A stretch of 64,000 bases of DNA. Origin: Cyclobacteriaceae bacterium. GTDB taxonomy: Bacteria; Bacteroidota; Bacteroidia; Cytophagales; Cyclobacteriaceae. Below are positions 1,271 to 23,873 of the stretch, one piece after another (positions within the stretch are counted from its first letter, which is position 1; each line of letters starts with the position of its first letter). Under the pieces are notes generated by a model. It ran no database searches, was not told where the DNA came from, and worked only from the letters and a program-made list of their open reading frames with translations. Location of the stretch: assembly GCA_020436165.1 (NCBI GenBank), contig JAGQYI010000063.1, positions 1 to 64,000 on the forward strand, given 5' to 3'. A program made the translations under genes and the position numbers.

Positions 1271-4200
1271 ATGAAAAAAGGTATTGCTTTTTCCTTGGCT
1301 TTTTCATTGCTGAGCACATTTTGTATAGCTCAAACTACCATTAATTATGATCCTGATCTTTCTAACATACCCAATCCCGAAAGAGGATTCTACCATCATA
1401 CAGAAACCCATTCAAACAATTATACTTTTCTTAACTCAGAAACGCTGGCCTCGTACAGAAACGATGGAATAACGCTTATTCTAAGAGTATTTTACCTTGA
1501 GGCATTTAAGGAAGGTGCTATTTCAAACACGTACCTTGAAAATATGCAAAAGGATTTTTTGGAGGCTAGAAAAGCGGGCGTAAAAGTGGTGGTTAGATTT
1601 GCTTATACCAGTAAATCCACCGCACCATATGGAGATGCCCCGTTGGATATTGTTTTACAACATATTTCTCAACTACAACCTGTACTAAGATCAAATTCAG
1701 ATGTTATTGCTTTATTCCAGGCTGGTTTTATTGGTGCGTGGGGAGAATGGTATTACACAGATTATTTTTCAAATATTGTTGGCTCTCCCAATGCAGAAGA
1801 TTGGATAAACAGAAGAGCATTGGTCAATGCGTTTTTGGAAGCCGTTCCGGAAAACCGGATGATTCAGGTTAGAACTCCTAAAATAAAAATGTCTTTGCTT
1901 GAAGATGAAACGCCCATCGCAGAGGCAGATGCGTATAACGGTACTGCAAAAGCAAGACTTGCGCATCACAATGATTGTTTTGTTGCTTCTGAGACAGATT
2001 ATGGAACCTACGTAGACATACCAACTGAAAAAGCTTATTTAGAAGCTGAAACCAAATACCTTGTAATGGGGGGCGAGACATGTAATTTAGCTGATCCTTA
2101 CTCATATTGTCCTAATGCCGTATCTGAGTTGGAGCGCTTTCATTGGTCATTTTTAAATATTGATTACAACCAGACAGTATTAAATGTTTGGAAAGAAGAT
2201 GCATGCTTTGAAGAGGTGCAGCTAAATCTTGGATATAGGTATCGTTTGGTTGATGCAACCGTAACTTCAGAAGCCAGGCCTGGAGACAAGTTTAGTGTAA
2301 ATGTAAATTTGGTAAACGATGGGTGGTCGAATGTATATAATGAGCGAAAGTTTGAATTTGTTTTGATCAACAATACAACGAATAAGGAGTACTATTTTGA
2401 AACAAGCGAAGACCCAAGACTTTGGTCAATTGACAACTCCAATGCTGTTAACCTTACGGTTGGAATTCCTGGTGATATTGAGCCTGGTGATTATTCTGTT
2501 TTTATTAATCTTCCGGACCCCGAACCTTCATTGTATGGAAATCCCAACTATTCAATAAGATTAGCCAATACTGATATGTGGAATAGCCAACATGGCTACA
2601 ATGATCTGGGTATTGATTTAAATATTTCAACAAGTAATTCTGGAAACACGTACACTGGAGATGATTTTTTCCAGGAAAGAATGACTTCAACATCAGAACC
2701 AAGCGAAATAATAGTAGATGGAGGTTCCAGTGATTGGGGAACTATTACTTCATCATTCGAGTCAATGGGTAATTTGTATGCAAAGTCTATAAAACTTTAC
2801 AATAGCGCTGATAGCCTTTATTTTTTAATTGAAGGTCAAAATTTAAATGATGCTTACCAAATTTTTCTGGATCTGGATCAATCCGCTACAACCGGGTATC
2901 ATGCATGGCAATGGACCAATAACGGGGCCGATCTTTTAATCGAAAATGGCATTCTATACGATTACAGTGGAACAGGTAATGCGTGGGGCTGGACCGTTAA
3001 TGGCAATAGTAATTCGGTAAAGAACTCAGATGTTATTGAATTAGGAATACCCTTGTCACTTTTAGATGGACATGCCGAGATCAATTTTGCTTTTGTTAGT
3101 GACCCCAACAACACTATTGATGATAATTATCTTCCTGATCAAAACTCAGACTTTCTCACTTACAGATTATTTCTTTCTATGAATAGAGAACTTTTTAGCG
3201 GGCAGGACCAAAATAAGCTACTCTTGTATTGGGGGAAAACAGAGGAGGGTGTGATTAGAACAATTGAGCGCTCTGAAAATGCAAGTAATTATACCATTAT
3301 AGCAACAATTGATGGAAGTGTAGACTCTTATACAGATTACGATGTATCGGGTGGAATAGACTATTCGTATCGATATTATTTACGAAAGGGAGAGCAAATT
3401 TCTCAATACTCTTCTGGTGTTACTGTAAGCACAAATGATGGAAGGGACAGATATTATAATATTGTTATTGATGGACTTGATAACGATTGGTTTGCAATAC
3501 CACCTTTGGCAACACAGCAATTGAATAATAAAGCCTATTTCATACGATCACAGTGGGGTAGTGCCAAGGCAAATTTCATTTTCTCGTCAGTAGGGGTTGA
3601 CAGTTATGCAATTTTTATGGATACAGATGCGAACGGGTCCACGGGTGGTTCAACTTACGAGGGTGCATCCAATGGTGGTTATGATTATCTTATAAAGGAT
3701 GGTGATCTTTTTAAGTATAATTCTGGCAATTGGGAATCAACAGGAAACACGGTAGAAGAAGTTAAAACATCCCATCTGGATGAGCTGAGCATACCTCTTT
3801 CGAATCTTGACAACCTGGGTGATAATGCGCTCATTAATATGAATATATTTTTGGTAAATGGAATAGATACGGCCTATTTACCATCCAAAGAATTTTATGC
3901 TGCTTATGTTAGAACTTTGCCTTCTGCCGTACCTGAATCTTTCAGCATTCGCAAATCGGAGGAACTTCCTAAAAGCAGATTAATACTTACCTGGACCAAA
4001 TGCTATGATTGTGATGGCTATATACTAGAAAGATCACTTGATGGCATTGATTTTAATGAAATTACTTCTTTGGATGCGGAAGAAGATCTTTACCGTGATG
4101 ACAATTTAGAAGATGAAACCACTTATTTCTACCGTATGTACTCATATACGGATATTGGACCCTCTGGGTACACTGACATAGTATCAGAAACTACAGGAGA

Positions 4201-4474
4201 AGAAGTCCTTGGCTTTAGAAGTGAGCTTGAAGGAATGATTCAAACTTATCCCAATCCTGTTGGAAATATGCTGACGATAAAAACCGAATTGTATCCTGGA
4301 GTTTATCAGGTGCGAATTATGCAACCTGATGGAAGGGTTGTTAAAGATATGTCATTGAAAATTAGTGGTAATAATGCCTCCTTTTCACTGGATGGAATTG
4401 AGAATGGAGTTTACATACTTGTAGTGACAAAGGAGGATATCAATTACCAAACACGATTTTTGAAACTTAATTAA
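1271..4474 (+). CDS. Secreted DUF4874/DUF4832 protein with T9SS sorting domain
   Basis: A 1067-residue exported protein. Signal peptide ends near CIAQ (residue 21). Residues about 25-185 match the DUF4874 type (SNIPNPERGFYHH start) and about 190-410 the DUF4832 type, which together make a TIM-barrel-like unit. GAWGEW places a Glu at 159 and MGGET a Glu at 269, positions that look like a glycosidase acid pair. Two domains starting IIVDGGSSDW (about 477) and IVIDGLDNDW (about 737) resemble the C-terminal half of the PKD lipoproteins; Fn3-like segments follow, and residues about 985-1067 (TYPNPVGN motif) form a T9SS type A sorting domain. Role inferred: secreted glycan-binding or glycan-cleaving enzyme of this locus. 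The family has no activity that I can name with certainty. Confidence 0.7.
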   Translation: MKKGIAFSLAFSLLSTFCIAQTTINYDPDLSNIPNPERGFYHHTETHSNNYTFLNSETLASYRNDGITLILRVFYLEAFKEGAISNTYLENMQKDFLEARKAGVKVVVRFAYTSKSTAPYGDAPLDIVLQHISQLQPVLRSNSDVIALFQAGFIGAWGEWYYTDYFSNIVGSPNAEDWINRRALVNAFLEAVPENRMIQVRTPKIKMSLLEDETPIAEADAYNGTAKARLAHHNDCFVASETDYGTYVDIPTEKAYLEAETKYLVMGGETCNLADPYSYCPNAVSELERFHWSFLNIDYNQTVLNVWKEDACFEEVQLNLGYRYRLVDATVTSEARPGDKFSVNVNLVNDGWSNVYNERKFEFVLINNTTNKEYYFETSEDPRLWSIDNSNAVNLTVGIPGDIEPGDYSVFINLPDPEPSLYGNPNYSIRLANTDMWNSQHGYNDLGIDLNISTSNSGNTYTGDDFFQERMTSTSEPSEIIVDGGSSDWGTITSSFESMGNLYAKSIKLYNSADSLYFLIEGQNLNDAYQIFLDLDQSATTGYHAWQWTNNGADLLIENGILYDYSGTGNAWGWTVNGNSNSVKNSDVIELGIPLSLLDGHAEINFAFVSDPNNTIDDNYLPDQNSDFLTYRLFLSMNRELFSGQDQNKLLLYWGKTEEGVIRTIERSENASNYTIIATIDGSVDSYTDYDVSGGIDYSYRYYLRKGEQISQYSSGVTVSTNDGRDRYYNIVIDGLDNDWFAIPPLATQQLNNKAYFIRSQWGSAKANFIFSSVGVDSYAIFMDTDANGSTGGSTYEGASNGGYDYLIKDGDLFKYNSGNWESTGNTVEEVKTSHLDELSIPLSNLDNLGDNALINMNIFLVNGIDTAYLPSKEFYAAYVRTLPSAVPESFSIRKSEELPKSRLILTWTKCYDCDGYILERSLDGIDFNEITSLDAEEDLYRDDNLEDETTYFYRMYSYTDIGPSGYTDIVSETTGEEVLGFRSELEGMIQTYPNPVGNMLTIKTELYPGVYQVRIMQPDGRVVKDMSLKISGNNASFSLDGIENGVYILVVTKEDINYQTRFLKLN

Positions 4475-4498
4475 TAGTAAAATTGGCCGTTTTTTGGC

Positions 4499-5500
4499 CT
4501 ATTGAGGTAGTTTGTACCATTTCATTGCATTTTCAAAGTAGACTTTTTTAATAACCTCATCAGGTAACTTCAGGCCGTTGAACACACCTGTCACTTTCGG
4601 AGCACTCATTGTATCTTTAGTTGTAAAGAACCTCCAATGCATCTGGTATTTGGCTTCCATTGTTTCAATAAGTTCTTTATCGGAAAGCGATCCATCGTCA
4701 ATTACGTCTGTGCCATAAATAATTCTATCCTGATACTTCAAAAAGAAGTTATAAACCTTTTGCCAATCGGTTTTGCATTGATGTTGCAAATGGCATATTC
4801 TTTCGGCCAGATCTACAGCTGCCAAAGGAAATTTATCTAAAAAGTCACCTATTTTATCTACATTCCACTCATGACTAGCCAAGTGTAAACCAACAAATCT
4901 CAGTTTTGGGTGTTTTTCAAGTCTTCTGTTTCTCGCTTCCAAATGATCCTTATATGCAGGCATTTCCGGGTGCAGGTACATATGATATTCGGGGTGTTCT
5001 TTAAAGTATGCCCTGTCCTGCTCTACTGTCATTTTTTCAATTGGCAACCAACAGTTTTTAGGTTCACCATTGTGTCCAAGAACAACTAAATCATTTTCTT
5101 CCAAATAATTAAAAATCGAATCGAATGAGTGATGATCAAGTCCAATGTAATTTTCATCTAAGTCGGTTACTTCCATTCCGATATTCTTCCAAACCTTAAC
5201 ACCAATAGCTCCGTTTGAAAATGATTTCTTTAATATACTAAGTACATCGGACTCCCAGTTTAATGATCCCCAGTTAGCCATTGGGAATGAGGCAACATAG
5301 TGTAATTGATTCCCAACTGCGTATTTTAATTTAAGAATTGTTTTCTCCTGGTCTTCTAAGGGTTTGAAAAAGGGTATATCGGTATTAATAGACAAGTATT
5401 TAATGTTGTTCTTGGCTCCATAATTGAGCAATGCCACTCGTTCATAATTGAAATGAACATGCGCATCTATTTTGGGTATATTCCAGTTTATATTTCCCAT
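4499..5500 (-). CDS. Cytosolic amidohydrolase-2 family TIM-barrel hydrolase
   Basis: A 333-residue protein without a signal peptide. Metal-ligand pattern of the amidohydrolase superfamily is visible: DAHVHF near the N terminus (HxH), LGHNGEP, GLHLASHEW, and a late Asp in IIYGTDV. It converges on the secreted DUF4832 gene and diverges from agaS. A related but exported protein is encoded at 8735, so the two may act on the same compound in different compartments. Members of this broad family hydrolyse lactones, decarboxylate aromatic acids or deacylate; I cannot choose among them. Given the missing GalNAc-6-phosphate deacetylase in an otherwise complete Aga-like pathway, a deacetylase role is worth testing, but this is inference only. 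Confidence 0.7.
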   Translation of the reverse strand: MGNINWNIPKIDAHVHFNYERVALLNYGAKNNIKYLSINTDIPFFKPLEDQEKTILKLKYAVGNQLHYVASFPMANWGSLNWESDVLSILKKSFSNGAIGVKVWKNIGMEVTDLDENYIGLDHHSFDSIFNYLEENDLVVLGHNGEPKNCWLPIEKMTVEQDRAYFKEHPEYHMYLHPEMPAYKDHLEARNRRLEKHPKLRFVGLHLASHEWNVDKIGDFLDKFPLAAVDLAERICHLQHQCKTDWQKVYNFFLKYQDRIIYGTDVIDDGSLSDKELIETMEAKYQMHWRFFTTKDTMSAPKVTGVFNGLKLPDEVIKKVYFENAMKWYKLPQ

Positions 5501-5625
5501 ATGACAAAATTGTTGATTTTAAACCATTGAAGTTTGATCAGATTAAAGTACTTCATGATGAATTGGTTTATCAATTTATTTTTCCAAACTTCATTTTAAC
5601 CCCTTCACACAACTAGTTAGCAGAA

Positions 5626-5640
5626 CTTTCTTTTCTTTCG
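5626..5640 (+). promoter_or_regulatory. Possible DeoR/AgaR-type operator before agaS
   Basis: CTTTCTTTTCTTTCG shows TTTC units at roughly 5-base period. E. coli AgaR operators are known to contain repeated CTTTC-like pentamers, and this window encodes a DeoR-family regulator at 21064. Similar runs occur at 19918-19942 and 22916-22938. In AT-rich DNA such T-rich runs can arise by chance. Confidence 0.3.
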
Positions 5641-5694
5641 ATAAATATATAAAAAAGAAACTATATATAAGTTTAATATAAAATAATGAAAGAT

Positions 5695-5725
5695 ATTGAA
5701 GGTATATATAATTACATTATATTTG
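5695..5725 (+). promoter_or_regulatory. Candidate promoter of the agaS operon
   Basis: ATTG at 5695-5698, 19 bases, then TATATTTG at 5718-5725, an exact TAnnTTTG -7 box. The agaS start at 5767 lies about 40 bases downstream, giving a short leader. Confidence 0.5.
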
Positions 5726-5766: not shown

Positions 5767-6921
5767 ATGAGTGTACTTGGATATAGCGAACAGGAGCTAT
5801 TGTCTTTGGGAGGATATCATACAGCTGTTGAAATAGCGCAACAACCAAATGTTTGGAAAAAGGTATGGGAAACTGTTTTTGAGAGAAAGAATGATATAAA
5901 ATTCTTTTTGAATGAAGCTGTTAACAAAGCACATAGTATAATTTTAACTGGAGCAGGAACAAGTGCTTTCATTGGGCTCTCTTTAAAGGGAGTTTTTGGT
6001 AACAGCACTGGCCTTATAACTGAATCTATTTCAACCACAGATCTGGTTTCACACCCAACCCATTATTTGCTAAAAAACCATCCCATTCTTCTTATATCAT
6101 TTGCCAGGTCGGGTGATAGCCCAGAAAGCAAAGCTGTTTTGAAGCTGGCAGATAAATATAGCCAGGAGTGTTATCATTTAATAATTACTTGTAATCCTAA
6201 TGGCGAGCTTGCCAAAGGAACTACCAAGAATGGTAAGTTCGTTTTTCTTTTGCCAGAGGAGGCCAATGACCAGAGCCTGGCTATGACAAGCAGCTACTCA
6301 GGTATGCTTTTAGCAGGTATGCTTATAGCCAAAATAAATGAGATTGAATCACTAAAGCCACAGGTTGATTTGTTGGTAACGTACGGCAGAAATTTGCTTG
6401 ACCAATCTGATAGGATCAAACAACTTGCCGGTTTGAATTTTAAAAGAGCAGTCTTTCTTGGCTCAGGACCACAATATGGAACCGCCAAGGAATCCCATCT
6501 TAAATTGCAAGAGCTTACAGATGGAAGAGTAATATGCAAACATGATTCCTACCTTGGATTCAGACATGGTCCCAAAGCGGTTATTGATAACTCAACTTTA
6601 GTTGTATATCTATTGTCTAATGAACCTTACGTTCAGAAATACGAAAAGGATCTGGTTAGTTCGATGCATAATGATAAGAGAGCAATGTGTGAAGTAGCAA
6701 TAATGGAGAGAGAAATTGAAGGAATTAATATAGGTGAAAGCTTTGTAATGAATACAGGAGGTGGAAAACTAGATGAAGAAATGCTACCTGTATGTGCAAT
6801 AATCCCTGCTCAATTGTTTGGGTTTCACAAATCGGTTGCATTAGGGTTGCTTCCTGATAAGCCTTCTGCAAGTGGGGCCATTTCAAGAGTGGTAGAAGGA
6901 GTGAAAATATATGACCTTTAG
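5767..6921 (+). CDS. agaS: Galactosamine-6-phosphate deaminase/isomerase, AgaS-like
   Basis: A 384-residue cytosolic protein with two SIS domains. It matches the AgaS family along its length: ILTGAGTSAFIG, TTDLVSHPTHYL, LISFARSGDSPESKA, CYHLIITCN, AMTSSYSG, GFRHGPKAV and the C-terminal DKPSASGAISRVVEGV. AgaS converts galactosamine-6-phosphate to tagatose-6-phosphate plus ammonia in the GalNAc/galactosamine pathway. It is the first gene of a plus-strand operon, with a sugar kinase 43 bases downstream and a tagatose-type aldolase after that, which supports the assignment. The ATG at 5767 sits about 40 bases after a good promoter. A ketose/aldose isomerase acting on another hexosamine phosphate is the main alternative. 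Confidence 0.88.
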   Translation: MSVLGYSEQELLSLGGYHTAVEIAQQPNVWKKVWETVFERKNDIKFFLNEAVNKAHSIILTGAGTSAFIGLSLKGVFGNSTGLITESISTTDLVSHPTHYLLKNHPILLISFARSGDSPESKAVLKLADKYSQECYHLIITCNPNGELAKGTTKNGKFVFLLPEEANDQSLAMTSSYSGMLLAGMLIAKINEIESLKPQVDLLVTYGRNLLDQSDRIKQLAGLNFKRAVFLGSGPQYGTAKESHLKLQELTDGRVICKHDSYLGFRHGPKAVIDNSTLVVYLLSNEPYVQKYEKDLVSSMHNDKRAMCEVAIMEREIEGINIGESFVMNTGGGKLDEEMLPVCAIIPAQLFGFHKSVALGLLPDKPSASGAISRVVEGVKIYDL

Positions 6922-6964
6922 AATCGATTTTTTGAACTAGATTACCAAGGTAAACAAACGAAAT

Positions 6965-7909
6965 ATGAAAGAGTTTGATGTGTTGGTTGTAGGGGAGCTT
7001 AATGTTGATATAATTCTTGATAGAATTAATGGGTTTCCCGAAATAGGAAAGGAAATTTTATCAGAAAAGTTAACGGTTACCCTTGGAAGCAGTTCCGCAA
7101 TTTTTGCCAGCAATTTGAGCACCCTTGGTGCTAAAGTTGCCTTTTTGGGAAAAATAGGTAAGGATAGTCATGCGGAGTTGGTTAAATCAACACTAAAGGC
7201 AAAAAATGTGAATGTTGAAAATGTTATTGAAACCTCTGAATTCAATACCGGTGTAACAGTTGTTCTTAATTACGATACAGACCGCGCCAATGTTACCTAC
7301 CCGGGCGCTATGGATCATTTGAGCCTGGATGATATTACTGATGTTATTTTGAGCAAAGCCAAACATTTGCATTTAAGTTCTGTTTTTATGCAACCCGGTT
7401 TAAAACCAGGTGTAACGGAACTATTTAAACGAGCTAAAAAACTTGGTTTGACAACATCCCTGGATCCTCAGTGGGATCCATCTGAAAAATGGGAGTTGAA
7501 TATCAAAGAGCTGCTACCTCTAATAGATATTTTCCTTCCCAACATAAAAGAATTTCAATTTATTACTAAGGCATCAAGTATCGATCAAGGTATTGAAAAA
7601 GTGAAGGATTTTGCCAATGCAATTGTGATCAAGGATGGGGTTAATGGAGCACATTTATGGAATAACAATAAGCTTGTAACCAAAGAGGCCTATCTGAATA
7701 GCAAAGTGGCAGATTGCATTGGTGCGGGCGATAGTTTTGATGCTGGCTTTATCAGTCAATTTATAAAAGGAGTTCCTCTTGAAAACTGTTTGCAATATGG
7801 CAACGTTTCTGGGGCAGTAAATACAACAAAAAGAGGTGGAACAACGGCATTCAGTTCTTTAGAAGATTTTAAAGAAATAGCTAATCGAAAATTTTCTGTT
7901 AAACTATAA
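6965..7909 (+). CDS. PfkB-family sugar kinase, ribokinase-like
   Basis: A 314-residue cytosolic kinase. N-terminal signature VVGELNVDIILD and C-terminal PfkB signature CIGAGDSFDAGF with the catalytic Asp in GAGDSFD are clear. Sequence style is ribokinase-like (takes an unphosphorylated sugar) rather than the FruK/LacC style of the second kinase at 22941. Its stop overlaps the aldolase start (TAATG at 7907), so the two are translationally coupled. Inference: it phosphorylates the imported sugar, possibly galactosamine or GalNAc, ahead of AgaS. It could instead be a tagatose-6-phosphate kinase. Confidence 0.82.
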   Translation: MKEFDVLVVGELNVDIILDRINGFPEIGKEILSEKLTVTLGSSSAIFASNLSTLGAKVAFLGKIGKDSHAELVKSTLKAKNVNVENVIETSEFNTGVTVVLNYDTDRANVTYPGAMDHLSLDDITDVILSKAKHLHLSSVFMQPGLKPGVTELFKRAKKLGLTTSLDPQWDPSEKWELNIKELLPLIDIFLPNIKEFQFITKASSIDQGIEKVKDFANAIVIKDGVNGAHLWNNNKLVTKEAYLNSKVADCIGAGDSFDAGFISQFIKGVPLENCLQYGNVSGAVNTTKRGGTTAFSSLEDFKEIANRKFSVKL

Positions 7910-8724
7910 TGAAATTACAAGATCAACTCGCGCTAAACAAGAAAGAGAAAAAGGCACTACTGGCAACGAATTTCTATAATTATGAAACATTAGCTGCCGT
8001 TTTAACAGCAGCAAAAAGACTAAACACCTCACTTATTCTTCAGCTTTCAGAAAGCTCCATCCATTACATGGGCCTTGAAGTGGCTAAAAGTTTAGCTGAT
8101 AGTGCCCGAAGTCAATTTGGAGTTAATGCATGGCTTCATCTGGACCACGGGCAGGACATAAACTTAATCAAACAATGCATTGATATTGGGTTTGATTCGG
8201 TAATGATTGATGCAAGCGAAAAGCCGTTTGAGGAGAACATAAAAGTAACATCTGAAATTGTGGAATATGCCTCAAAAAAGAACATTAACGTGGAAGCTGA
8301 ACTGGGCTATGTGGCCAAGCTTGGACAGGCACAAGAAATGGTGTATACACAACCTGATGAAGCACGTGAGTTTGTAGAACGAACAGGCGTAAATGCATTA
8401 GCAATTGCGGTTGGCTCTGCGCATGGATTCTATAAAGAGATGCCTAAACTCCAGCTAAATTTAATTGAAGAAATTAACAATGCTACAACAGCAGCTTTGG
8501 TGCTACATGGTAGCTCAGGTATACCTCACGATCAGGTAAAGGAGTCTATAAAAAGAGGTATTACAAAAATTAATCTGGCTACAGAAATAAAGAATATTTT
8601 CATGAAAAGCCTACAGCAGATACTTGCCAATAATGAAGAAATAGATCTAAGAAAAGTCTTTCCAAGGGCTACGGCAAGTGCCACTCAATTAGTAACCGAA
8701 AAGCTTAAAATGATAAATTTTTAA
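7909..8724 (+). CDS. Class II ketose-bisphosphate aldolase, KbaY/GatY-type
   Basis: A 271-residue protein of the zinc-dependent class II aldolase family. Diagnostic stretches are AWLHLDHGQD (catalytic Asp and first zinc His), DSVMIDASEKPFEEN, VEAELGYV, AIAVGSAHGFY (zinc His), LVLHGSSGIP (zinc His) and ITKINLATEI. Length and motifs fit tagatose-1,6-bisphosphate aldolases such as KbaY, GatY and AgaY, which yield dihydroxyacetone phosphate and glyceraldehyde-3-phosphate. The start codon overlaps the kinase stop. Together with AgaS and two PfkB kinases it completes the lower galactosamine route. Fructose-1,6-bisphosphate specificity cannot be excluded from sequence alone. Confidence 0.85.
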   Translation: MKLQDQLALNKKEKKALLATNFYNYETLAAVLTAAKRLNTSLILQLSESSIHYMGLEVAKSLADSARSQFGVNAWLHLDHGQDINLIKQCIDIGFDSVMIDASEKPFEENIKVTSEIVEYASKKNINVEAELGYVAKLGQAQEMVYTQPDEAREFVERTGVNALAIAVGSAHGFYKEMPKLQLNLIEEINNATTAALVLHGSSGIPHDQVKESIKRGITKINLATEIKNIFMKSLQQILANNEEIDLRKVFPRATASATQLVTEKLKMINF

Positions 8725-8734
8725 TGTAACAAAC

Positions 8735-11852: not shown

Positions 11853-11864
11853 AATCAATGCTTT

Positions 11865-13403: not shown

Positions 13404-13494
13404 GCCTGCTAAAAGTTAAACTTTGGTTAACAGTAAAGTGCGGAACTAAACTTTGGCAACTAACATATGTATTAAACTACTTACCCGATTAAAA

Positions 13495-16671: not shown

Positions 16672-19600
16672 CTAGAAATTAATGTTTAATTGAACATTGT
16701 ACTGTTTGCTTAAAGGGTATTTTAGGAAAGATAAACCCGGAAGCTCGAAGGCCCCTAAGGTCATATTTATGTCAGGATCCATTCCTGAAAATTTGGTAAA
16801 AGTGAGCAAGTTGTCAACGCTTGCACCAATTGAAGCACTTTTTATTTTAGCCCAACCAAGTACCAACTGGGGTAAATTGTAAGAAAGAGAGATATTTCTT
16901 ATTCTCATATAGTCACCTTTTTCTATATATCTTGAGGATGTAAAATGAGATCCATCGTTATCGCCCTTCGTTAAAATTGGATGAGTAGCTATATCGCCAG
17001 GTTTTAACCATCTTGTCCACCCATCTTGTAATTCCATCATGTTAATGCCCACGTTAGCCCCATCGGAATCAACGAATTCTCTTGTTGAGTTATATATTTC
17101 GTTCCCTAATTGATATGTCAAAAGAAAACTTAGAGTGAGACCTTTATAAGAAATGCTACTGGTCATACCACCTGAAATTTTTGGAATTGCTGATGATATT
17201 GGTTGAATGGTCGCAAGATTATAATCTGAAGTTTCTGTAGCAGTTCCGTCAGGTAAAATTTGTTCCCAAACGGGGGCTCCGTTATCAGGATTAACACCAA
17301 GCCATTTCGGCATATACCATGTAAAAGCGGGTAAACCTACTTTATTGATTTGAAAAACTGGACCTGAACTAATGTATTGCTCGTCACTTACCTCTGAAAT
17401 GTAAGTCATCTCATTTTGGTTATACGATATATTGAAGTTGCCATTATAGGTCCAATCTCCAAATGATTTTTTATAGTCAACACTAAACTCGATTCCTTTA
17501 TTTACCATAGATCCAATGTTTTCCCACCTGGATTCAAACCCCTGGGAATAGGCCAATGGATTTTTAAAAAGCATATTGTCTACCTTTTTTTCATATACAT
17601 CAATGGTAAAAAGCAAATCACTATTAAATAAACCAAAATCAACACCAATATTAGCGATGGTTGAAGTTTCCCATCCTAGTTGTTTGTTTTCAGGGTTGGC
17701 GGGGATTCCTGCCGGTTGCCCGTCATATTGTGTAGATATATCATATAGTGGGTAGTATTCATAAGGTTGCGGGCCACCTAATGTTCCTAAACCATCATTT
17801 CCGACCAAACCATAACTAAGTCTCAACTTCAGTAACTTAATGACTGAACTTGAAAGAAAATCTTCCTCGGAAACTAACCATGCCACCGAAGCGGATGGGA
17901 ATGCACCCCAGCGACTGTCAGGAGCAAAAATTGAGGAACCGTCAGCCCTGTAAACCAATGTTGCAAAATATTTGCTCTTAAAACCATAGTCAATTTCACT
18001 AATAAACGAAAGAGATGAAAATTGGGCAAATGCTCCTGAAACATCGTTATAGCTGGAGGCCCCAACAGGAACTTTAATAGTAGGGGCAAGATTGGAAACT
18101 TCTACACCTAAGGAATTGGTTTGATCCGAGGCACCTTCCTGTGCTAAAAACGCAGTCAGTGCGTGGTCTCCAAACGATTTGTTTAGTCGGATAAAGTTAG
18201 TGTAGAGAATAGACCGGTTGCTAACCTGATCAGCGTAGACAATACCATTCATTTGAATGCCTTCGTGTGTAAGAGGGGAATAATATTGGTCATACCGACT
18301 ATTACTTCCACTTACTCTTACCCTTGTTTCAAGGCTTAGCCAATCAGTAATATTGAATAGTAGTCTTGTGGACCAAACCAAGTTCATTCCCTTTGAACCC
18401 AAAGAATTGTATTTGGCCGAGTTAACAAAATTTCGTCTAAATTGTCCGTACCATTTTCCAGTAAATGAGCTTGAATTTACAAATTTTGTAGTTCCATCTT
18501 CATTATAGGGATCATCCCATGGTAAACTATAAAAAGCATCTTCAAACCAGGAATAATGACTCTGATGATCTTGGTTAAACTGAGCATTCACATCGGTTGA
18601 TAATGAAAATACATCTGAAGCTGAAAAACTTATTCCACCACGCATATTCAACCTTTGAAAATCTGTATTGATAAATGTACCCTCTTCATCAAAGTAGTCT
18701 ATATTAAAGCTGTAGGACACTTTTGAAGCATTTCCTCTTACAGCAAAATTGTAGTTTTGAATGGTTGCTTTGCGGAACCCTGCATCTATCCAATTAAAAT
18801 TCTGGTCCCTCAATTCTTGCGGTCTGTTAGCCAAAAAACCAAGTCTGTCGGTGCCCCACATTATTTCCTGAGTATCGTATAACTCTGAACCACTCATCAT
18901 TTTAAACTTACCCATGCTTGCTTCTTTAATACCAAAGGAACTCCCAAAATGAATTTCATTAGTATTATCTTTTGCCCTTTTTGTTGTAACAACTAAAACT
19001 CCAGCTGCTCCACGAGAACCATAAAGACCAATTGCAGCAGCATCTTTTAAAACAGTTATGTTTTCTACATCGCTTGGTACAAAATTTCCACCAATCATCC
19101 CGTCAACTACGATCAAAGGAGATCTGTCCGCATTAATTGAAGTGATGCCTCTAAGCCTGATATCAGGTGCAGCACCGGGTTGTCCGGTTGAGGTATTCAC
19201 AGTTAGACCGGCAACTTTACCTTGTAGCATATTCTCCACATTACTCGAAGTCACGTTTTTTACATCATCTATGCCGAGTGATACAACAGAGGCGGAAAGC
19301 TCTTTTTGACTTTTCTGACTATATCCGGTAACAATGATTTCATCTAATGTGGAAACATCTTCAACTAAGGAAACATTTATGACTGTTTGACTACCAACCT
19401 CTATTTCTTCCGTGTTAAAACCAACAAAAGAAAACACTAATGTTTCTTCTGGATTAACTTTTATATAATAGTTGCCATCCAAATCAGTAGTTGTGCCTCG
19501 TGTAGTTCCTTTAATAAATACACTAACACCTGGTAGTGCAGTATTATCAGTGGCTGATACTACCTTACCTGAAACTTGCTGTTGCGCAAGCGCATCGGAA

Positions 19601-19686
19601 TACTTGGCTATCACAGCAGTAAATATTATGAGATGAAGAATGAGAAATTTAAATTTCCAAGGCTTCGCAAGTATTTTTACTTTCAT
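16672..19686 (-). CDS. susC: SusC/RagA family TonB-dependent transporter
   Basis: A 1004-residue outer-membrane transporter. After an export signal (to about residue 35, DALAQ), residues about 37-115 form a CarboxypepD_reg-like domain (VSGKVVSATDNTALPGVSVF), followed by the TonB-box-like LDEIIVTGYSQ and a plug domain (LRGITSINADRSPLIVVDGM). The remaining residues form the beta barrel, ending in aromatic-rich QYNVQLNINF. It pairs with the SusD gene downstream to import oligosaccharides using TonB energy. It is divergent from the PKD lipoprotein at 19991 across a 304-base gap, and no HTCS or ECF-sigma gene is present, so control probably comes from the DeoR-type regulator nearby. Confidence 0.93.
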   Translation of the reverse strand: MKVKILAKPWKFKFLILHLIIFTAVIAKYSDALAQQQVSGKVVSATDNTALPGVSVFIKGTTRGTTTDLDGNYYIKVNPEETLVFSFVGFNTEEIEVGSQTVINVSLVEDVSTLDEIIVTGYSQKSQKELSASVVSLGIDDVKNVTSSNVENMLQGKVAGLTVNTSTGQPGAAPDIRLRGITSINADRSPLIVVDGMIGGNFVPSDVENITVLKDAAAIGLYGSRGAAGVLVVTTKRAKDNTNEIHFGSSFGIKEASMGKFKMMSGSELYDTQEIMWGTDRLGFLANRPQELRDQNFNWIDAGFRKATIQNYNFAVRGNASKVSYSFNIDYFDEEGTFINTDFQRLNMRGGISFSASDVFSLSTDVNAQFNQDHQSHYSWFEDAFYSLPWDDPYNEDGTTKFVNSSSFTGKWYGQFRRNFVNSAKYNSLGSKGMNLVWSTRLLFNITDWLSLETRVRVSGSNSRYDQYYSPLTHEGIQMNGIVYADQVSNRSILYTNFIRLNKSFGDHALTAFLAQEGASDQTNSLGVEVSNLAPTIKVPVGASSYNDVSGAFAQFSSLSFISEIDYGFKSKYFATLVYRADGSSIFAPDSRWGAFPSASVAWLVSEEDFLSSSVIKLLKLRLSYGLVGNDGLGTLGGPQPYEYYPLYDISTQYDGQPAGIPANPENKQLGWETSTIANIGVDFGLFNSDLLFTIDVYEKKVDNMLFKNPLAYSQGFESRWENIGSMVNKGIEFSVDYKKSFGDWTYNGNFNISYNQNEMTYISEVSDEQYISSGPVFQINKVGLPAFTWYMPKWLGVNPDNGAPVWEQILPDGTATETSDYNLATIQPISSAIPKISGGMTSSISYKGLTLSFLLTYQLGNEIYNSTREFVDSDGANVGINMMELQDGWTRWLKPGDIATHPILTKGDNDGSHFTSSRYIEKGDYMRIRNISLSYNLPQLVLGWAKIKSASIGASVDNLLTFTKFSGMDPDINMTLGAFELPGLSFLKYPLSKQYNVQLNINF

Positions 19687-19990
19687 ATACTTATATTTTG
19701 ATGTTAATGCTAATGTAAAAAATAAAATTAATCTACAATAGGCTAATCACCTATTTATTTGAATTAGCTTTGATTATTAATTTTTATTATTTAAAAATGT
19801 GCCTGATGCCTTCATAATGCTGAGTGCATTTTGTAGCGAATTCGAAACAATAAGTAATTCTTATTACGATAACATATAAGAATATTTGATTTTTTAATAA
19901 ATGAAAATAAGATAATGTTTTGTTTGCTTTCGTTTATTTATTATATACTTTCGTTATCAATAGTCCAATTAATTAACAATTTAGAAAGTT
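19687..19990. other. Divergent intergenic region between susC and PKD lipoprotein
   Basis: This AT-rich 304-base region should contain the promoters for both divergent transcripts. On the plus strand I can support the promoter at 19923-19953. I could not find a convincing TTTG/TAnnTTTG pair on the minus strand for susC. No reading frame or RNA gene is evident. Confidence 0.5.
19923..19953 (+). promoter_or_regulatory. Candidate promoter of second PKD lipoprotein
   Basis: TTTG at 19923-19926, a 19-base spacer and TACTTTCG at 19946-19953. The -33 box lies in TTTTGTTTGCTT (19918-19929), the same 12-mer found before the paralogue at 272 and at nearly the same distance from the start codon. The run from 19918 to 19942 also repeats TTT every 5 bases, as DeoR/AgaR operators do. 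Confidence 0.5.
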
Positions 19991-20902
19991 ATGCGTAGTA
20001 CAAATTTAAAATTAACAGTTTATAGTTTTTTAATGCTTGGCTTCCTGGCATTTGTTAGCTCTTGTAAAAAGGAAGAGGCTGTTCCAGCGCCTAAGGCTGA
20101 TTTCACATATGAAATAAGTGGAACCACGGTTACTTTTACAAATACTTCTACCGATGGAGATACTTATTCCTGGGATTTTGGGGATGGAGCAACATCAACA
20201 GATGAATCACCATCTCATACTTACAACGATTTTGCTGCCTACATTGTAGAACTAACTGCGACTAATGCATCAGGTTCTGATACCAAGTCAGTAGCAGTTC
20301 AGGTAGTACCAGAGATTACTATTGATGGAGATTTTTCCGATTGGGCTGATATTCCAGCACTTTCAACGCGAAACTCGGAGAATACAGGAGCGGTAACCAA
20401 GATTAAACTCGTATCAAGTCTCACACATATTTATGTTTATGTGGAGGGCACCGATGATCTGGGAGGATTCATTTCTATGTATATCAATGCTGATAATGAT
20501 ACCACAACAGGATGGGCTCCAAAGAATCATGTTTTTGATTTGGAAGGAAATAAAACTGCAACACAGGCAGGTGGAGATTATGAAATTGACCTAGGTGGCC
20601 CATGGAGTGATGGAGGTTATTCAACCGAAATTTGGAGTTGGTTGGAAAACCCTGCCAATACAGATCAGGCAGAGTGGTCATTTGAAGGAGAAGAAGTTGG
20701 ATCTGAGGATGTCTTTATTAAGCCTATAAAATCTGGTAATGCATACGAATTTGCAATAGTAAGAGCTAATTTTCCTGGTGGAATATCAGACACAATGTCG
20801 TTCTTGTTTGTTGATGTTGATATTGCCAATGACGATTGGGTTGAAACAGGATATCTACCCAATGATGGAGAGGGCTTCATTCAGGTAGATCTATTTAAAT
20901 AA
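19991..20902 (+). CDS. PKD-domain surface lipoprotein, paralogue of the first
   Basis: A 303-residue lipoprotein with Cys25 at the end of FVSSC. PKD domain at about 33-105 with SWDFGDGATSTDESPSHTY, almost the same as in the paralogue at 272. The C-terminal domain starts IDGDFSDWADIPA and keeps the repeated pattern of a beta-sandwich with MYINADNDTTTGW, a possible calcium-binding loop. It is divergent from susC and ends at a clear terminator. Likely a surface glycan-binding protein in the SusE/SusF role. The two paralogues share regulation signals (12-mer in the promoter) and may bind different parts of one glycan. Confidence 0.78.
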   Translation: MRSTNLKLTVYSFLMLGFLAFVSSCKKEEAVPAPKADFTYEISGTTVTFTNTSTDGDTYSWDFGDGATSTDESPSHTYNDFAAYIVELTATNASGSDTKSVAVQVVPEITIDGDFSDWADIPALSTRNSENTGAVTKIKLVSSLTHIYVYVEGTDDLGGFISMYINADNDTTTGWAPKNHVFDLEGNKTATQAGGDYEIDLGGPWSDGGYSTEIWSWLENPANTDQAEWSFEGEEVGSEDVFIKPIKSGNAYEFAIVRANFPGGISDTMSFLFVDVDIANDDWVETGYLPNDGEGFIQVDLFK

Positions 20903-20927
20903 TAATAGTAGGTTAATAAACGATTCG

Positions 20928-20958
20928 AGGCTGTTCAATTTATTGGCAGCCTTTTTTG
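20928..20958 (+). terminator. Rho-independent terminator
   Basis: AGGCTG (20928-20933) pairs with CAGCCT (20947-20952) across a 13-base loop, followed by a T run. It ends the second PKD lipoprotein gene. Confidence 0.7.
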
Positions 20959-21063
20959 TTTTAATTCTTTTGGCTTCGAAAGCTACTGTTAAATTAATAT
21001 TTGCGATTTGTTGGGGTTCTTCTTCTGGAAAGAAGGAATATTCTGTCAGATTGAACTTACATT

Positions 21064-21846
21064 TCAGGCAATGTATACCTCAATCCCACTTTCTTCCAAC
21101 CTTTTTTTGTCTTCACTTTTTATACCTTTATCGCTTACCACCTTACTAATATTTTCCAGCCCACAGATAAATGCAAAACTCTTTTTACCGAATTTGCTTG
21201 AGTCGGTAAGTAAAATAGTTTCGTTCGAAACCTCAATCATCAATTCATTTAAATGAGATTCTTCAATATTTGGGGTATAAAGACCATGTCTTGTATCGAT
21301 ACCATCAACACCAATAAATGCCTTGTCAACCGTAAAGTTTTTAAGACTTTTTTCTGCCATTGGCCCAACCAACGATTGCGAATTCTTTCTCATATAACCA
21401 CCTGGAATTATAAGGTTAATATTTGGCTTGTTGGATAAGAGAACTGCAATATTCAATGCGTTGGTGATAACAGTCAAGTCTTCCAGATGATCCAAATGCT
21501 TTACCATTTCTGCAGTGGTTGTTCCTGAATCAACTAAAATTATTTCTGAGTTTCTGATTAGGGTAGCAGCTAGTTCGCCAATTCTCTTTTTTTCCTCAAA
21601 GTGAATTTTATCTTTTTCTGAAAGCTGGTAGTCAAGGCCAACTCTACCAGTGTATTTCATTGCACCTCCTCTGGCTCGTATAAGAAGATTTTTGTGCTCT
21701 AGCTGGTCTAAATCATTTCGAATGGTAACCTCGCTTACTTTAAATGCTTTGCTTAATTCGTCTACGAATACTTCTCCATCGGCTTCAAGCCTTTGCATTA
21801 TCTGGTTTCTTCTAGCAACTGTGCTATTTCTACTTTTTACGGCCAT
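21064..21846 (-). CDS. DeoR/AgaR-family transcriptional regulator
   Basis: A 260-residue regulator if started at MAVKSRN (21846); an in-frame ATG at 21867 gives 267. The N-terminal winged helix is the DeoR signature (VDELSKAFKVSEVTIRNDL, then LIRARGGAM). The sugar-phosphate-binding effector domain shows ILVDSGTTTAEM, LTVITNALNIA, AFIGVDGIDTRHGLY and LLTDSSKFGKKS, the DeoR_C pattern. Such proteins usually repress sugar catabolism genes until a phosphorylated sugar binds. Placed between the PKD lipoprotein and the permease, it is the only regulator in the locus. Candidate TTTC-repeat operators lie before agaS, the PKD lipoproteins and the second kinase. Confidence 0.9.
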   Translation of the reverse strand: MAVKSRNSTVARRNQIMQRLEADGEVFVDELSKAFKVSEVTIRNDLDQLEHKNLLIRARGGAMKYTGRVGLDYQLSEKDKIHFEEKKRIGELAATLIRNSEIILVDSGTTTAEMVKHLDHLEDLTVITNALNIAVLLSNKPNINLIIPGGYMRKNSQSLVGPMAEKSLKNFTVDKAFIGVDGIDTRHGLYTPNIEESHLNELMIEVSNETILLTDSSKFGKKSFAFICGLENISKVVSDKGIKSEDKKRLEESGIEVYIA

Positions 21847-21929
21847 GGTTAAATTTTTGCGTTGCAATATACCATTTAAGAGGGAATTTTTTCAAAATTA
21901 CATTGTTTCCAATTCTTTATTTATAGTTA

Positions 21930-22805
21930 CTATTCTTCCGAATCTATAGCCAAAAGCAATGCGGCAATTACTGCTAAGCCAATTCCGGAGATTACTGTGG
22001 AATTAGGAATAACTCCGAGCAGAATCATTGCCAATACAGAAGTGATTAAGGGTGCACCAGCATTTGTTAAGGGTGAAACAACAATTGCCTTACCGTATCT
22101 GAATGCAAATACCAAAGAGAGTGCTCCCAATGAGTTTAGTATTTGTATGCCTGCTGCGAGCCAGGGACCATCAATGCCCCAATTGATCTCAGCAGAAAAA
22201 TCTGTCATAAAAATGGCTATGGGTATGAGAACAAGCCCGCTAAGCATCATGTAAAAAAAGATACTTTCTCCGCTCATGGTTTCATTAGCTAGTTTCATAA
22301 AATATGCTTGCACACCCCAGGCTATGAGAACTAACAATGCCAACAGAAACCAAACTATGTTTTGAGTCGTATTGCCCACTCCGGCACTATAATTAAGTAA
22401 GGGCAAACTAACAAGTGCCAATACTATACCAATGGCTCCTAACTTACCGGTTCTTTCCTTAAGCAGAAGAAGTGAAAGCACTATAGTTATTACAGGCGAA
22501 AGAGAAATAATTGGAAATATTAAGTGGGGTGGTCCAATTTTCACTGCGTGAAAAAGAATTAGCTGACCACCGGCACCAAAAAGGCCAATGATTAAACCAT
22601 AAATGATGGATTTTCGGTCATACTCTAATTTCCACTTTGCAAGATTTAGCACAATAAATGCAGGCGGTATCATGGTTATTGCCCAAACACAATAGACGAG
22701 GGTTTCCGGGAATCCATTTTCTGTGGGCAAGCCAATTAGTGCTCCCCAAACACCCCAAAAAATAGTTGTTGCTAACGCATATACTAACCACAATTTTGAT
22801 TTCAT
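21930..22805 (-). CDS. EamA/DMT-type permease, probable sugar uptake
   Basis: A 291-residue inner-membrane protein from MKSKLWLVY (22805; a longer start at 22829 is possible). About ten hydrophobic helices in two EamA-like halves, e.g. ATTIFWGVWGALIGLP and LSPVITIVLSLLLL in the first and VSPLTNAGAPLITSVLAM in the second. The family includes sugar permeases (GlcU/RhaT-like) and metabolite exporters. Its place between the regulator and the tagatose-6-phosphate-type kinase suggests import of the released monosaccharide across the inner membrane, which fills an otherwise missing step. This is inference from position, not from substrate-specific residues. Confidence 0.75.
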   Translation of the reverse strand: MKSKLWLVYALATTIFWGVWGALIGLPTENGFPETLVYCVWAITMIPPAFIVLNLAKWKLEYDRKSIIYGLIIGLFGAGGQLILFHAVKIGPPHLIFPIISLSPVITIVLSLLLLKERTGKLGAIGIVLALVSLPLLNYSAGVGNTTQNIVWFLLALLVLIAWGVQAYFMKLANETMSGESIFFYMMLSGLVLIPIAIFMTDFSAEINWGIDGPWLAAGIQILNSLGALSLVFAFRYGKAIVVSPLTNAGAPLITSVLAMILLGVIPNSTVISGIGLAVIAALLLAIDSEE

Positions 22806-22915
22806 TATTCTTTCTGTTTTGTAAAACAATGCCCAAAATACATAAAGGTTTTGTAAAAAATAATTATTTCATATACTAATTATTTAAGGTTATATATTTT
22901 GTTTTTTAATATTTT

Positions 22916-22923
22916 TACTTTCG
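22916..22923 (+). promoter_or_regulatory. Possible -7 box and operator of second PfkB kinase
   Basis: TACTTTCG at 22916-22923 is the same octamer used as -7 box before the gene at 19991, and ACTTTCGTT followed by TTATC recurs in both. The nearest TTTG upstream is only 14 bases away, so a full promoter is not clear. Confidence 0.3.
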
Positions 22924-22940
22924 TTTAATTATCTTTTCAA

Positions 22941-23873
22941 ATGAACAAGGACTTAAATAAAGTTAATGTACTCGTGGTTTGCCCAAACCCGTCAATAGAT
23001 ATTTATGCCGCAATTGACGGGTTTAATATTGGATCGACTACAAGGATAAAAAATGAGAGCAGATACCCGGGAGGTAAAGGAGTGCATGTGGCAATGGCTT
23101 TGTCAGAATTAGATATTCATGTAACATTAGTTGGTTTTTGGGGAGGTGTTACAGGAGAATGGGTTAAGAATGAAATAACGAAAATTTATCCTGATATTAA
23201 GATTGATGGGGTAAACATTCCAGGTTGGACCAGAAGCTGTTATACATTTAAATCCACAAACAGTGATGATGATTCAGAGTTGTTGGGAGCCGGACCAGAA
23301 ATTTCCCCAACAGATTACAATAATTTTTTAGGTATTGTTATGGATTATTTGTCCAATTCTTCCGCCCTGGTCTTAAGTGGTTCCTGGCCTTTAGGAGCTC
23401 CTTCAAATGGTTATGCTCAACTAATAAAACTCGCCAAATCATATAACGTTAAATCTTTTCTCGATTGCACTGGGGAACAATTCAATAATGCACTAAAAGA
23501 AGAGCCTTTTTTAATTCATTTAAATAGGCATGAGGTTATGGTAACTACCGGAATAACAGATTTTGATAGAGCAAGGAAAAGGATATCCAAAATGGTAAAT
23601 AATTGTGTGATAACAAACGGAGATAAAGGTGTTTATTACAATACTAAAGAAACTGAAGTTCACAGTGTTTATAGAATTAAAGATGTTGTAAGTACGATTG
23701 GCTCTGGCGATTGTTTACTAGCAGGGATAGTTGCAGGACATTTGAAAGATCTTCCTATTCAGGAAATAGCCAATTTAGGGGCGGCATGTGGTGCAGCAAA
23801 TTGCATGAGAAAAGAACTTGGGATGTTACATAAAAGTGATCTTCAAATGCTTCTTTCACAGGACTTAGAATAA
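22941..23873 (+). CDS. PfkB kinase, tagatose-6-phosphate/1-phosphofructokinase type
   Basis: A 310-residue cytosolic kinase of the FruK/LacC/PfkB hexose-phosphate branch: VCPNPSIDIYAAIDGF at the N terminus, YPGGKGVHVAMALSELD, LVLSGSWPLGAP and the catalytic STIGSGDCLLAGIVAG. This branch phosphorylates fructose-1-phosphate, fructose-6-phosphate or tagatose-6-phosphate. With AgaS and a KbaY-type aldolase in the locus, tagatose-6-phosphate is the natural substrate. It is divergent from the permease with a 135-base shared upstream region. Some substitutions (GSGDC for GAGDS) are seen in the second signature but the catalytic Asp is kept. Confidence 0.82.
   Translation: MNKDLNKVNVLVVCPNPSIDIYAAIDGFNIGSTTRIKNESRYPGGKGVHVAMALSELDIHVTLVGFWGGVTGEWVKNEITKIYPDIKIDGVNIPGWTRSCYTFKSTNSDDDSELLGAGPEISPTDYNNFLGIVMDYLSNSSALVLSGSWPLGAPSNGYAQLIKLAKSYNVKSFLDCTGEQFNNALKEEPFLIHLNRHEVMVTTGITDFDRARKRISKMVNNCVITNGDKGVYYNTKETEVHSVYRIKDVVSTIGSGDCLLAGIVAGHLKDLPIQEIANLGAACGAANCMRKELGMLHKSDLQMLLSQDLE

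What the first reader, a model, noticed from the sequence alone, without database searches (positions are those of the whole stretch)
1271..23873. Predicted alpha-galactosamine-type glycan utilisation locus under a DeoR regulator
AgaS, a KbaY-type aldolase, two PfkB kinases, GH36 and GH31 alpha-glycosidases, SusCD, two binding lipoproteins, a permease and a DeoR regulator occur together. The cytosolic part is the Aga pathway known from Proteobacteria; combining it with SusCD, T9SS enzymes and lipoprotein glycosidases is a layout I do not recognise as described. It predicts a polymer or glycoconjugate with alpha-linked galactosamine or GalNAc as substrate.
Basis: partly seen in the sequence, partly recalled or inferred. 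Interest (0 to 1): 0.78.

Follow-up and report, generated by a model that had tools for sequence, protein, structure and literature searches.

The report
Gene set for eating galactosamine biofilms
A bacterium carries a block of genes, most of which distant relatives keep together too, that is predicted to cut up, import and feed on galactosamine-rich polymers like those that other microbes likely use to build biofilms.

Summary
Window 272-23873 carries AgaS, two PfkB kinases, a class II aldolase, GH36, GH31, SusC/SusD, two paralogous PKD lipoproteins, an EamA permease and a DeoR-type regulator over the AgaR cut-off, plus a second DUF4832-like enzyme and two amidohydrolases. Nineteen loci elsewhere (18 Bacteroidota, one Colwellia) keep most of the set, and AgaS is in 22 of 23 genomes whose fetched locus has this GH36 near the DUF4832-like enzyme, against 24 of 390 genomes of the window's order. 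The nearest solved GH36 relative is a galactosaminidase; a DUF4832 enzyme broke Pel aggregates in print (PMC12345266). I predict a locus for alpha-1,4-galactosamine polymers of Pel or galactosaminogalactan type; galactosamine, likely not GalNAc, enters the Aga pathway (no NagA over cut-off, but that search has gaps). New here: relatives replace the LacC-like kinase PfkB2 by KbaZ, never both, which fits KbaZ as the reported tagatose-6-P 4-epimerase (PMC11907403). Substrate and all activities are untested.

The parts
272..1198 (+). PKD lipoprotein 1, predicted surface glycan-binding protein
   Evidence: PKD_4 over cut-off; 38% identical paralogue of 19991-20902; lipobox by eye
1271..4474 (+). 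DUF4874+DUF4832 enzyme with T9SS signal, predicted endo-acting hydrolase
   Evidence: DUF4832 231 bits, DUF4874 175 bits, Por_Secre_tail over cut-off; WGEW at residue 157; SIR_1591, also TIM barrel plus DUF4832, acts on Pel aggregates
4499..5500 (-). AH1, Amidohydro_2 without signal peptide by eye, role unknown (candidate deacetylase)
   Evidence: on the AgaS stretch in 8 of 23 order loci
5767..6921 (+). AgaS, predicted galactosamine-6-P deaminase/isomerase
   Evidence: TIGR02815 374 bits, under cut-off 529; PDB 3odp 301 bits
6965..7909 (+). PfkB1, predicted galactosamine kinase
   Evidence: PfkB 156 bits; in 42 of 43 tabulated loci, window included; the exception has a BcrAD_BadFG kinase
7909..8724 (+). 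class II aldolase, predicted tagatose-1,6-bisphosphate aldolase
   Evidence: PF01116 280 bits; cbbA 230.5 over its cut-off, tagatose model TIGR01858 212 under its cut-off
8735..9814 (+). AH2, Amidohydro_2 with signal peptide by eye, role unknown
9750..11852 (+). GH36, lipoprotein by eye, predicted alpha-galactosaminidase (open frame from a GTG; the true start is probably later)
   Evidence: Melibiase; FpGalNase 203-205 bits, next GH36 structure 34.7 bits
11865..13403 (+). T9TIM: T9SS protein, TIM barrel, divergent DUF4832-type enzyme
13453..15063 (+). GH31, predicted alpha-galactosidase
   Evidence: 8j50 549 bits; KFDAGD conserved
15204..16667 (-). SusD-like lipoprotein
   Evidence: SusD_RagB and SusD-like_3 over cut-off
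16672..19686 (-). SusC-like TonB-dependent transporter
   Evidence: TIGR04056 714 bits over cut-off
19927..19955 (+). two CTTTCGTT words between susC and PKD2, predicted AgaR operator
19991..20902 (+). PKD lipoprotein 2, predicted glycan-binding protein
   Evidence: PKD_4 over cut-off
21064..21867 (-). AgaR-class DeoR repressor
   Evidence: NF040755 269.4 bits, cut-off 260
21930..22829 (-). EamA permease, predicted galactosamine importer
   Evidence: EamA 93 bits; in 16 of 19 related loci
22918..22925 (+). CTTTCGTT word upstream of PfkB2, predicted AgaR operator
22941..23873 (+). PfkB2, predicted tagatose-6-P kinase (LacC/FruK type)
   Evidence: TIGR03168 212.6 bits, cut-off 216.4; never together with KbaZ in the genomes searched

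Best explanation
Window 272-23873 is a SusCD-type polysaccharide-utilisation locus that is predicted to break down an alpha-1,4-linked, galactosamine-rich exopolysaccharide of Pel or galactosaminogalactan type and would feed the released galactosamine through AgaS and tagatose phosphates into glycolysis. Predicted order of events: two T9SS-exported DUF4832-type TIM-barrel enzymes cut the polymer outside the cell; the two PKD lipoproteins and SusD hold it; SusC brings oligosaccharides in; the GH36 lipoprotein takes off galactosamine and the GH31 takes off galactose; EamA carries galactosamine across the inner membrane; PfkB1 phosphorylates it; AgaS turns galactosamine-6-P into tagatose-6-P and ammonia; PfkB2 and the aldolase finish the split. 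AgaR would repress the set through CTTTCGTT operators. In relatives KbaZ stands in for PfkB2, probably turning tagatose-6-P straight into fructose-6-P. Shown: gene content, synteny, co-occurrence, exclusion, motif. Inferred: every activity, the substrate, every location and the roles of AH1 and AH2.
For: (1) PfkB1 and aldolase on the AgaS stretch in 23 of 23 other AgaS loci of the order. (2) 19 loci with AgaS on the contig of a T9TIM relative: GH36 in 17, DUF4832 in 16, EamA in 16, DeoR in 15, SusC in 15. (3) AgaS in 22 of 23 genomes with GH36 in the fetched T9TIM locus, 13 of 27 others tested, 24 of 390 in the order. (4) GH36 is close to FpGalNase (203-205 bits), far from alpha-galactosidases (34.7 and 21 bits), and keeps W, DD, W, KxD, C and D of its active site. 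(5) SIR_1591, a TIM barrel with DUF4832, breaks Pel aggregates (PMC12345266, passages). (6) T9TIM model nearest to beta-amylases, which cut alpha-1,4 links (the reaction is recalled). (7) AgaR over cut-off. (8) No NagA over cut-off in the own genome or in 18 of 19 relatives, with the gap told below. (9) KbaZ in 14 of 31 genomes, PfkB2 over 200 bits in 10, never both; the fewest switches on the tree is 5. (10) The 4 of 19 loci in which no aldolase was found all have KbaZ. (11) Other AgaS loci carry GH109, GH20 or a weak GH123-like protein. (12) CTTTCGTT: 14 in 39,440 intergenic bases of the 19 loci, 2 in 60,697 control bases.
Against: No activity was measured. AgaS, the aldolase and PfkB2 are under their specific NCBIfam cut-offs. 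FpGalNase Y464 is not kept in the GH36. T9TIM relatives occur in genomes without AgaS (14 of 27 tested; some named as planctomycetes or Fibrobacter), so the family is not tied to galactosamine alone. One GH36-bearing genome (L087) has no AgaS. GH31 and AH1 are each found in 1 of 19 relatives, so they are not core. AH1 and AH2 are unexplained. In R. faecimaris PfkB2 is broken and KbaZ was not found. The relatives are partly bins of unknown completeness. The DUF4832 reading rests on one paper, whose products were not named in the passages I read.
Confidence: 0.68

Rival explanations
1. The locus eats a plain alpha-galactan: GH36 and GH31 release galactose, PfkB1 makes galactose-6-P, and AgaS only isomerises it to tagatose-6-P.
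For: GH31 is nearest to alpha-galactosidases; GH36 relatives are named alpha-galactosidase by several sources; AgaS-like proteins are often named tagatose-6-P ketose/aldose isomerase.
Against: Only close solved GH36 relative is FpGalNase; AgaR over cut-off; E. coli C without agaS did not grow on galactosamine, and AgaS deaminase activity is cited there from earlier work (PMC3668189, passages); other AgaS loci carry GH109 or GH20.
Confidence: 0.13
2. The substrate is a host glycan with terminal alpha-GalNAc or alpha-Gal (blood-group or mucin type).
For: FpGalNase acts on deacetylated A antigen (PMC11762096); some AgaS relatives carry GH109 and GH20; several related loci come from gut or rumen bins by title.
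Against: No Pfam hit to a fucosidase, sialidase or mucin peptidase in the 18 proteins at 272-32699 that were scanned; the outer enzymes are of DUF4832 type; other carriers are no gut bins by title (Reichenbachiella faecimaris, Portibacter lacus, Colwellia).
Confidence: 0.1
3. The cell turns over its own exopolysaccharide rather than foraging.
For: Pel makers carry such hydrolases beside their own biosynthesis genes (PMC7112168, passages).
Against: No PelF over cut-off in the own genome, best 44.5 against 100 bits; the locus has import and full catabolism genes. Other galactosamine polymer synthases were not searched.
Confidence: 0.05
4. KbaZ in relatives is only the stabilising aldolase subunit, and its exclusion of PfkB2 is lineage accident.
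For: Older assignment as told in PMC3668189; an aldolase is found in 10 of the 14 KbaZ loci.
Against: The fewest switches on the AgaS+PfkB1 tree is 5; in 4 KbaZ loci no aldolase was found; E. coli KbaZ and GatZ epimerise F6P to Tag6P (PMC11907403, passages); the Colwellia locus has a phosphoglucose isomerase.
Confidence: 0.15

Closest known systems
Aga/Gam pathway of E. coli and Shewanella
   Same: AgaS, class II aldolase, AgaR-class repressor
   Different: No NagA/AgaA over cut-off, no KbaZ; kinase and EamA permease where E. coli has a PTS; joined to SusCD and T9SS enzymes
B. thetaiotaomicron PUL BT4240-50 (PMC11992087, abstract, outline and passages)
   Same: SusCD locus for a galactosamine-type sugar with its own kinase
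   Different: That one uses a GalNAc 1-kinase, GH109 and GH2 and serves mucin; the word tagatose does not occur in its text
Streptococcal pel operon hydrolase SIR_1591 (PMC12345266, passages)
   Same: TIM barrel with DUF4832, as in 1271-4474
   Different: There it sits in a biosynthesis operon; here in a catabolic locus with T9SS signals. The two sequences were not aligned here
Flavonifractor plautii FpGalNase (PMC11762096, part 1 of 2 of the text)
   Same: GH36 with the same named active-site residues bar Y464
   Different: No FpGalNAcDeAc-like partner was identified here; different neighbourhood
GH31 alpha-galactosidases 8j50-8j53
   Same: 549 to 540 bits, catalytic KFDAGD
   Different: Here inside a galactosamine locus; the alpha-1,4-galactobiose specificity of those enzymes is recalled, not from a call

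Membership tests
SusCD-type polysaccharide-utilisation locus | adjacent SusC and SusD | tested here: met
   16672-19686 and 15204-16667, 4 bases apart
SusCD-type polysaccharide-utilisation locus | glycoside hydrolases beside them | tested here: met
   GH36, GH31 and DUF4832 enzyme
Aga/Gam pathway | AgaS | tested here: inconclusive
   374 bits, cut-off 529; PDB tagatose-6-P isomerase-named proteins 301-242 bits
Aga/Gam pathway | AgaR repressor | tested here: met
   269.4 bits, cut-off 260
Aga/Gam pathway | AgaA/NagA deacetylase | tested here: inconclusive
   no match over cut-off in the own genome, best 31 against 225.65 bits, but the control missed B. subtilis at E<=1e-10
Aga/Gam pathway | KbaZ | tested here: not met
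   no match in G000 at E<=1e-10 with a KbaZ-like query
Aga/Gam pathway | tagatose-bisphosphate aldolase KbaY/GatY | tested here: inconclusive
   TIGR01858 212 bits, cut-off 443.6
Aga/Gam pathway | PTS import | not tested
   no PTS Pfam hit among the proteins scanned in the locus; genome not searched
DUF4874+DUF4832 Pel hydrolases | both domains in 1271-4474 | tested here: met
   both over cut-off
DUF4874+DUF4832 Pel hydrolases | DUF4832 in 11865-13403 | tested here: inconclusive
   15.7 bits, cut-off 29.2; 9 of 21 aligned members, itself included, match at E<=1
DUF4874+DUF4832 Pel hydrolases | activity on Pel | not testable with these tools
   needs enzyme assay
FpGalNase-type GH36 | W317, D346, D347, W387, K461, D463, C513, D532 | tested here: met
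   aligned by HMMER; K461/D463 read by eye as K-M-D, where HMMER places a gap
FpGalNase-type GH36 | Y464 | tested here: not met
   glycine follows K-M-D
FpGalNase-type GH36 | alpha-galactosaminidase activity | not testable with these tools
   needs enzyme assay
BT4240-50-type GalNAc PUL | APH-type GalNAc 1-kinase | tested here: not met
   no APH domain among the 18 proteins scanned, 272-32699

The most novel reading that the evidence does not exclude
A widespread, so far unnamed class of locus lets Bacteroidota (and a Colwellia) graze on the Pel- and galactosaminogalactan-type biofilm matrix of other microbes, using a new family of beta-amylase-fold endo-alpha-1,4-galactosaminidases (11865-13403), and it has two interchangeable ways out of tagatose-6-P: the KbaZ epimerase to fructose-6-P, or a LacC-like kinase with an aldolase.
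Probability: 0.45. Interest if true: 0.85.

Novelty: new variant of a known kind. Interest (0 to 1): 0.7.

Why it matters
If true, matrix polysaccharides of Pel and galactosaminogalactan type are food for a dedicated gene system found across Bacteroidota, and each locus is a ready source of paired endo- and exo-enzymes against such matrices. The repeated swap of KbaZ and a LacC-like kinase is natural genetic evidence on a disputed protein: it fits KbaZ as an enzyme of its own and not only as an aldolase subunit. A gut-genome survey that I read in passages found the agaS plus agaA pathway only in Actinobacteria, Firmicutes and Proteobacteria (PMC5583593).

Tried and rejected
Sulfoquinovose catabolism (isomerase, kinase, aldolase, GH31) was considered and dropped: the GH31 is far closer to alpha-galactosidases (549 bits) than to YihQ (43 bits).

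AH1 as a substitute for NagA: of the 8 order genomes with AH1 on the AgaS stretch, 3 have NagA over cut-off, 1 has a match below it, 4 have none; all 15 without AH1 there have NagA. Suggestive, but 14 of those 15 are one genus, and close AH1 relatives also stand without AgaS within about 10 kb in all 14 loci fetched for this. No solved relative of AH1 at E<=1 or of AH2 at E<=0.001. The fold search of AH2 gave uncharacterised amidohydrolases and decarboxylases. Left open.

A gene of 486-532 aa next to T9TIM or GH36 in 6 of 19 loci looks NodB-like by eye; the members scanned have no Pfam (two members), NCBIfam or PDB hit (one member).

Rows and choices: the genome-contig scan kept the best 80 of 367 relatives. 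AgaS was sought in 50 of these 80 genomes, all 23 with a GH36 match in the fetched stretch (one of them, L112, a 70-residue piece at the edge) and 27 of 57 without, chosen by hand. Flanks were at most 10 kb, so the split is rough: when longer stretches were fetched, 4 of the 13 AgaS-positive 'without' loci (L084, L086, L120, L124) turned out to have GH36 further out. Of the 35 AgaS-positive genomes, 3 had AgaS inside the fetched locus at once without extension (L098, L107, L109), 17 were fetched as plausible by position, 16 of these proved to be the same contig and one (L175) not; 15 were not fetched. Hence 19 loci. Eleven order loci of one genus were left out of the tree. Searches used 31 genomes: 19 of the related loci, the own genome and 11 of 23 order genomes. 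Fisher values ignore relatedness. 'No aldolase' in 4 loci means none in the fetched stretch; those genomes were not searched for it.

Paper searches for a description of this locus; none of the rows listed is one (85 showed 12 of 21 papers, 86 showed 15 of 75). Only open-licence papers are held.

Full report
What is there. The window opens on a locus of sixteen genes. Running right from 5767 to 15063 with gaps of at most 49 bases are AgaS, PfkB1, a class II aldolase, AH2, GH36, a 512-aa T9SS protein (T9TIM) and GH31. To the left lie PKD lipoprotein 1, a DUF4874+DUF4832 enzyme with a T9SS signal, and AH1; to the right SusD/SusC, PKD lipoprotein 2, a DeoR-type regulator, an EamA permease and PfkB2. 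The regulator passes NCBIfam's AgaR cut-off, 269.4 against 260 bits. The two PKD proteins are 38% identical, and a module of about 85 residues from PKD1 recurs twice in the tail of the DUF4832 enzyme (E 6e-5 each), which suggests one shared ligand.

Is the company real? In 390 genomes of the order AgaS is rare, 24 of 390, and in the 23 others PfkB1 and the aldolase are on the same fetched stretch in every case. Among the outer enzymes that I scanned there are GH109, GH20, a weak GH123-like match and a heparinase-like protein. The GH36 clade is in 1 of 390, the own genome alone (E<=1e-60), so this outer set is rare in its order and was perhaps acquired. A scan of genomes of 84,980 species with T9TIM gave 367 relatives, of which the best 80 were kept. 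AgaS is in 22 of 23 genomes whose fetched T9TIM locus also has GH36, and in 13 of 27 of those without (Fisher p 0.0004, relatedness ignored; 4 of the 13 later showed GH36 further out). For 19 loci AgaS is on the same contig as T9TIM; these hold GH36 in 17, DUF4832 in 16, EamA in 16, DeoR in 15, SusC in 15, the aldolase in 15 and PfkB1 in 18. They include Reichenbachiella faecimaris, Portibacter lacus, Barnesiella and Paludibacter records and, without SusCD, Colwellia sp. C2M11.

The pathway. The Colwellia locus lacks PfkB1 and has a BcrAD_BadFG kinase with a weak NagK match instead, which points to PfkB1 as the amino-sugar kinase. Three loci in which no aldolase was found (L120, L124, L141) still keep PfkB1, which argues against PfkB1 making tagatose bisphosphate. 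NagA does not pass its cut-off in the own genome and does so in 1 of 19 related genomes, with one just under. By the criterion used in PMC5583593, AgaS without AgaA means galactosamine rather than GalNAc use. The NagA control has gaps: at E<=1e-10 it did not ring in Bacillus subtilis, which has a nagA (recalled), nor in Bacteroides ihuae. So this point is likely, not shown.

The swap. Between AgaS and PfkB1 many relatives carry a KbaZ/GatZ-like gene (PF08013). Among the 19 loci and the window, 14 have KbaZ and 6 have PfkB2, none has both and none lacks both, though the PfkB2 of R. faecimaris is broken by stops. In L090 and L105 PfkB2 sits in the KbaZ slot. Genome-wide, over 31 genomes, KbaZ is in 14 and none of these has a PfkB2 relative at E<=1e-15; PfkB2 over 200 bits is in 10; R. 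faecimaris has the broken one; 6 order genomes have neither, five of them with a distant match of 61-67 bits. Some of these genomes are bins of unknown completeness. On a tree of AgaS+PfkB1 (32 rows) the fewest changes between KbaZ and PfkB2 is 5. The four loci in which no aldolase was found all have KbaZ, and the Colwellia one has a phosphoglucose isomerase. GatZ and KbaZ of E. coli have been reported to epimerise fructose-6-P to tagatose-6-P (PMC11907403, passages). The plain reading is two exits from tagatose-6-P: epimerase to fructose-6-P, or kinase plus aldolase. The window has the second. Against it stands that 10 of 14 KbaZ loci also keep the aldolase. This is inferred from distribution; no KbaZ of these loci has been assayed.

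Regulation. The word CTTTCGTT stands twice between susC and PKD2 and once before PfkB2. In the whole window its count of 6 is only mildly above chance (2 of 100 shuffles reach it). It was found in the window and then tested elsewhere: 14 in 39,440 intergenic bases of the 19 loci and 21 in 65,755 of the 23 order loci, against 2 in 32,366 and 0 in 28,331 bases of two control sets. Anagrams of the word are not enriched in that way, though the one-base variant CTTTCATT is partly so. Likeness to the E. coli AgaR operator is recalled, not from a call.

Substrate. [quoted passage not shown] A GH36 of galactosaminidase type, a GH31 of alpha-galactosidase type, two DUF4832-type enzymes and no NagA over cut-off fit such a polymer best; GH31 favours the galactose-bearing kind. 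Bacterial sheath polymers with alpha-linked galactosamine (recalled) would fit as well. The own genome has no PelF over cut-off, so foraging is likelier than turnover of its own Pel.

What stays open. AH1 and AH2 are conserved enough to matter (AH2 52-67% identical in 7 of 19 loci; D, HxH, H, E, H, D kept in all 19 aligned rows) but their reaction is unknown. Relatives of T9TIM without AgaS show that the family has other settings. The claim 'works like an Aga pathway' is stronger than 'is the Aga pathway', since KbaZ was sought and not found, and no NagA/AgaA passed its cut-off.

Noticed in passing
window 23967-39862: Right beside the locus: a T9SS Endonuclease_1 protein, a 2159-aa T9SS protein with lamin-tail and Calx-beta domains, two Exo_endo_phos proteins, a TonB receptor and a DUF5017 protein. 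It looks like a set for extracellular DNA or phosphate, a fitting neighbour for matrix grazing.
   Followed up: partly
G391 (Reichenbachiella faecimaris), L088 near 11568-12440: PfkB2 relative broken by several stops while KbaZ was not found, so this strain may have neither exit or a substitute.
   Followed up: partly
L189:9426-10406 (G000 contig C2): Lipoprotein (by eye) at the place of a GH114-family match, 48.5 bits over cut-off; GH114 is the family of fungal Ega3 (recalled). No galactosamine genes were seen around it by eye.
   Followed up: partly
L086:8718-10175, L096:11581-13050 and four other loci: Unnamed 486-532 aa gene next to T9TIM or GH36 in 6 of 19 loci; NodB-deacetylase-like by eye, no family or PDB hit in the members scanned.
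   Followed up: partly
L182:16063-17130; clustered relatives in L124 and L141: APH-family kinase in three loci where no aldolase was found, like GalNAc 1-kinases by eye; with a GH109-cluster gene there too, GalNAc may take another route.
   Followed up: partly
L146 (Colwellia sp. C2M11): Locus with TonB receptor, GH27, phosphoglucose isomerase, BcrAD_BadFG kinase, KbaZ and AgaS: a proteobacterial version without SusCD.
   Followed up: partly
L084 and L086: Two neighbouring genes shared by both loci: a VCPO/DUF6851-like protein and an FG-GAP/ASPIC-UnbV protein with a T9SS signal; no link to the pathway seen.
   Followed up: no
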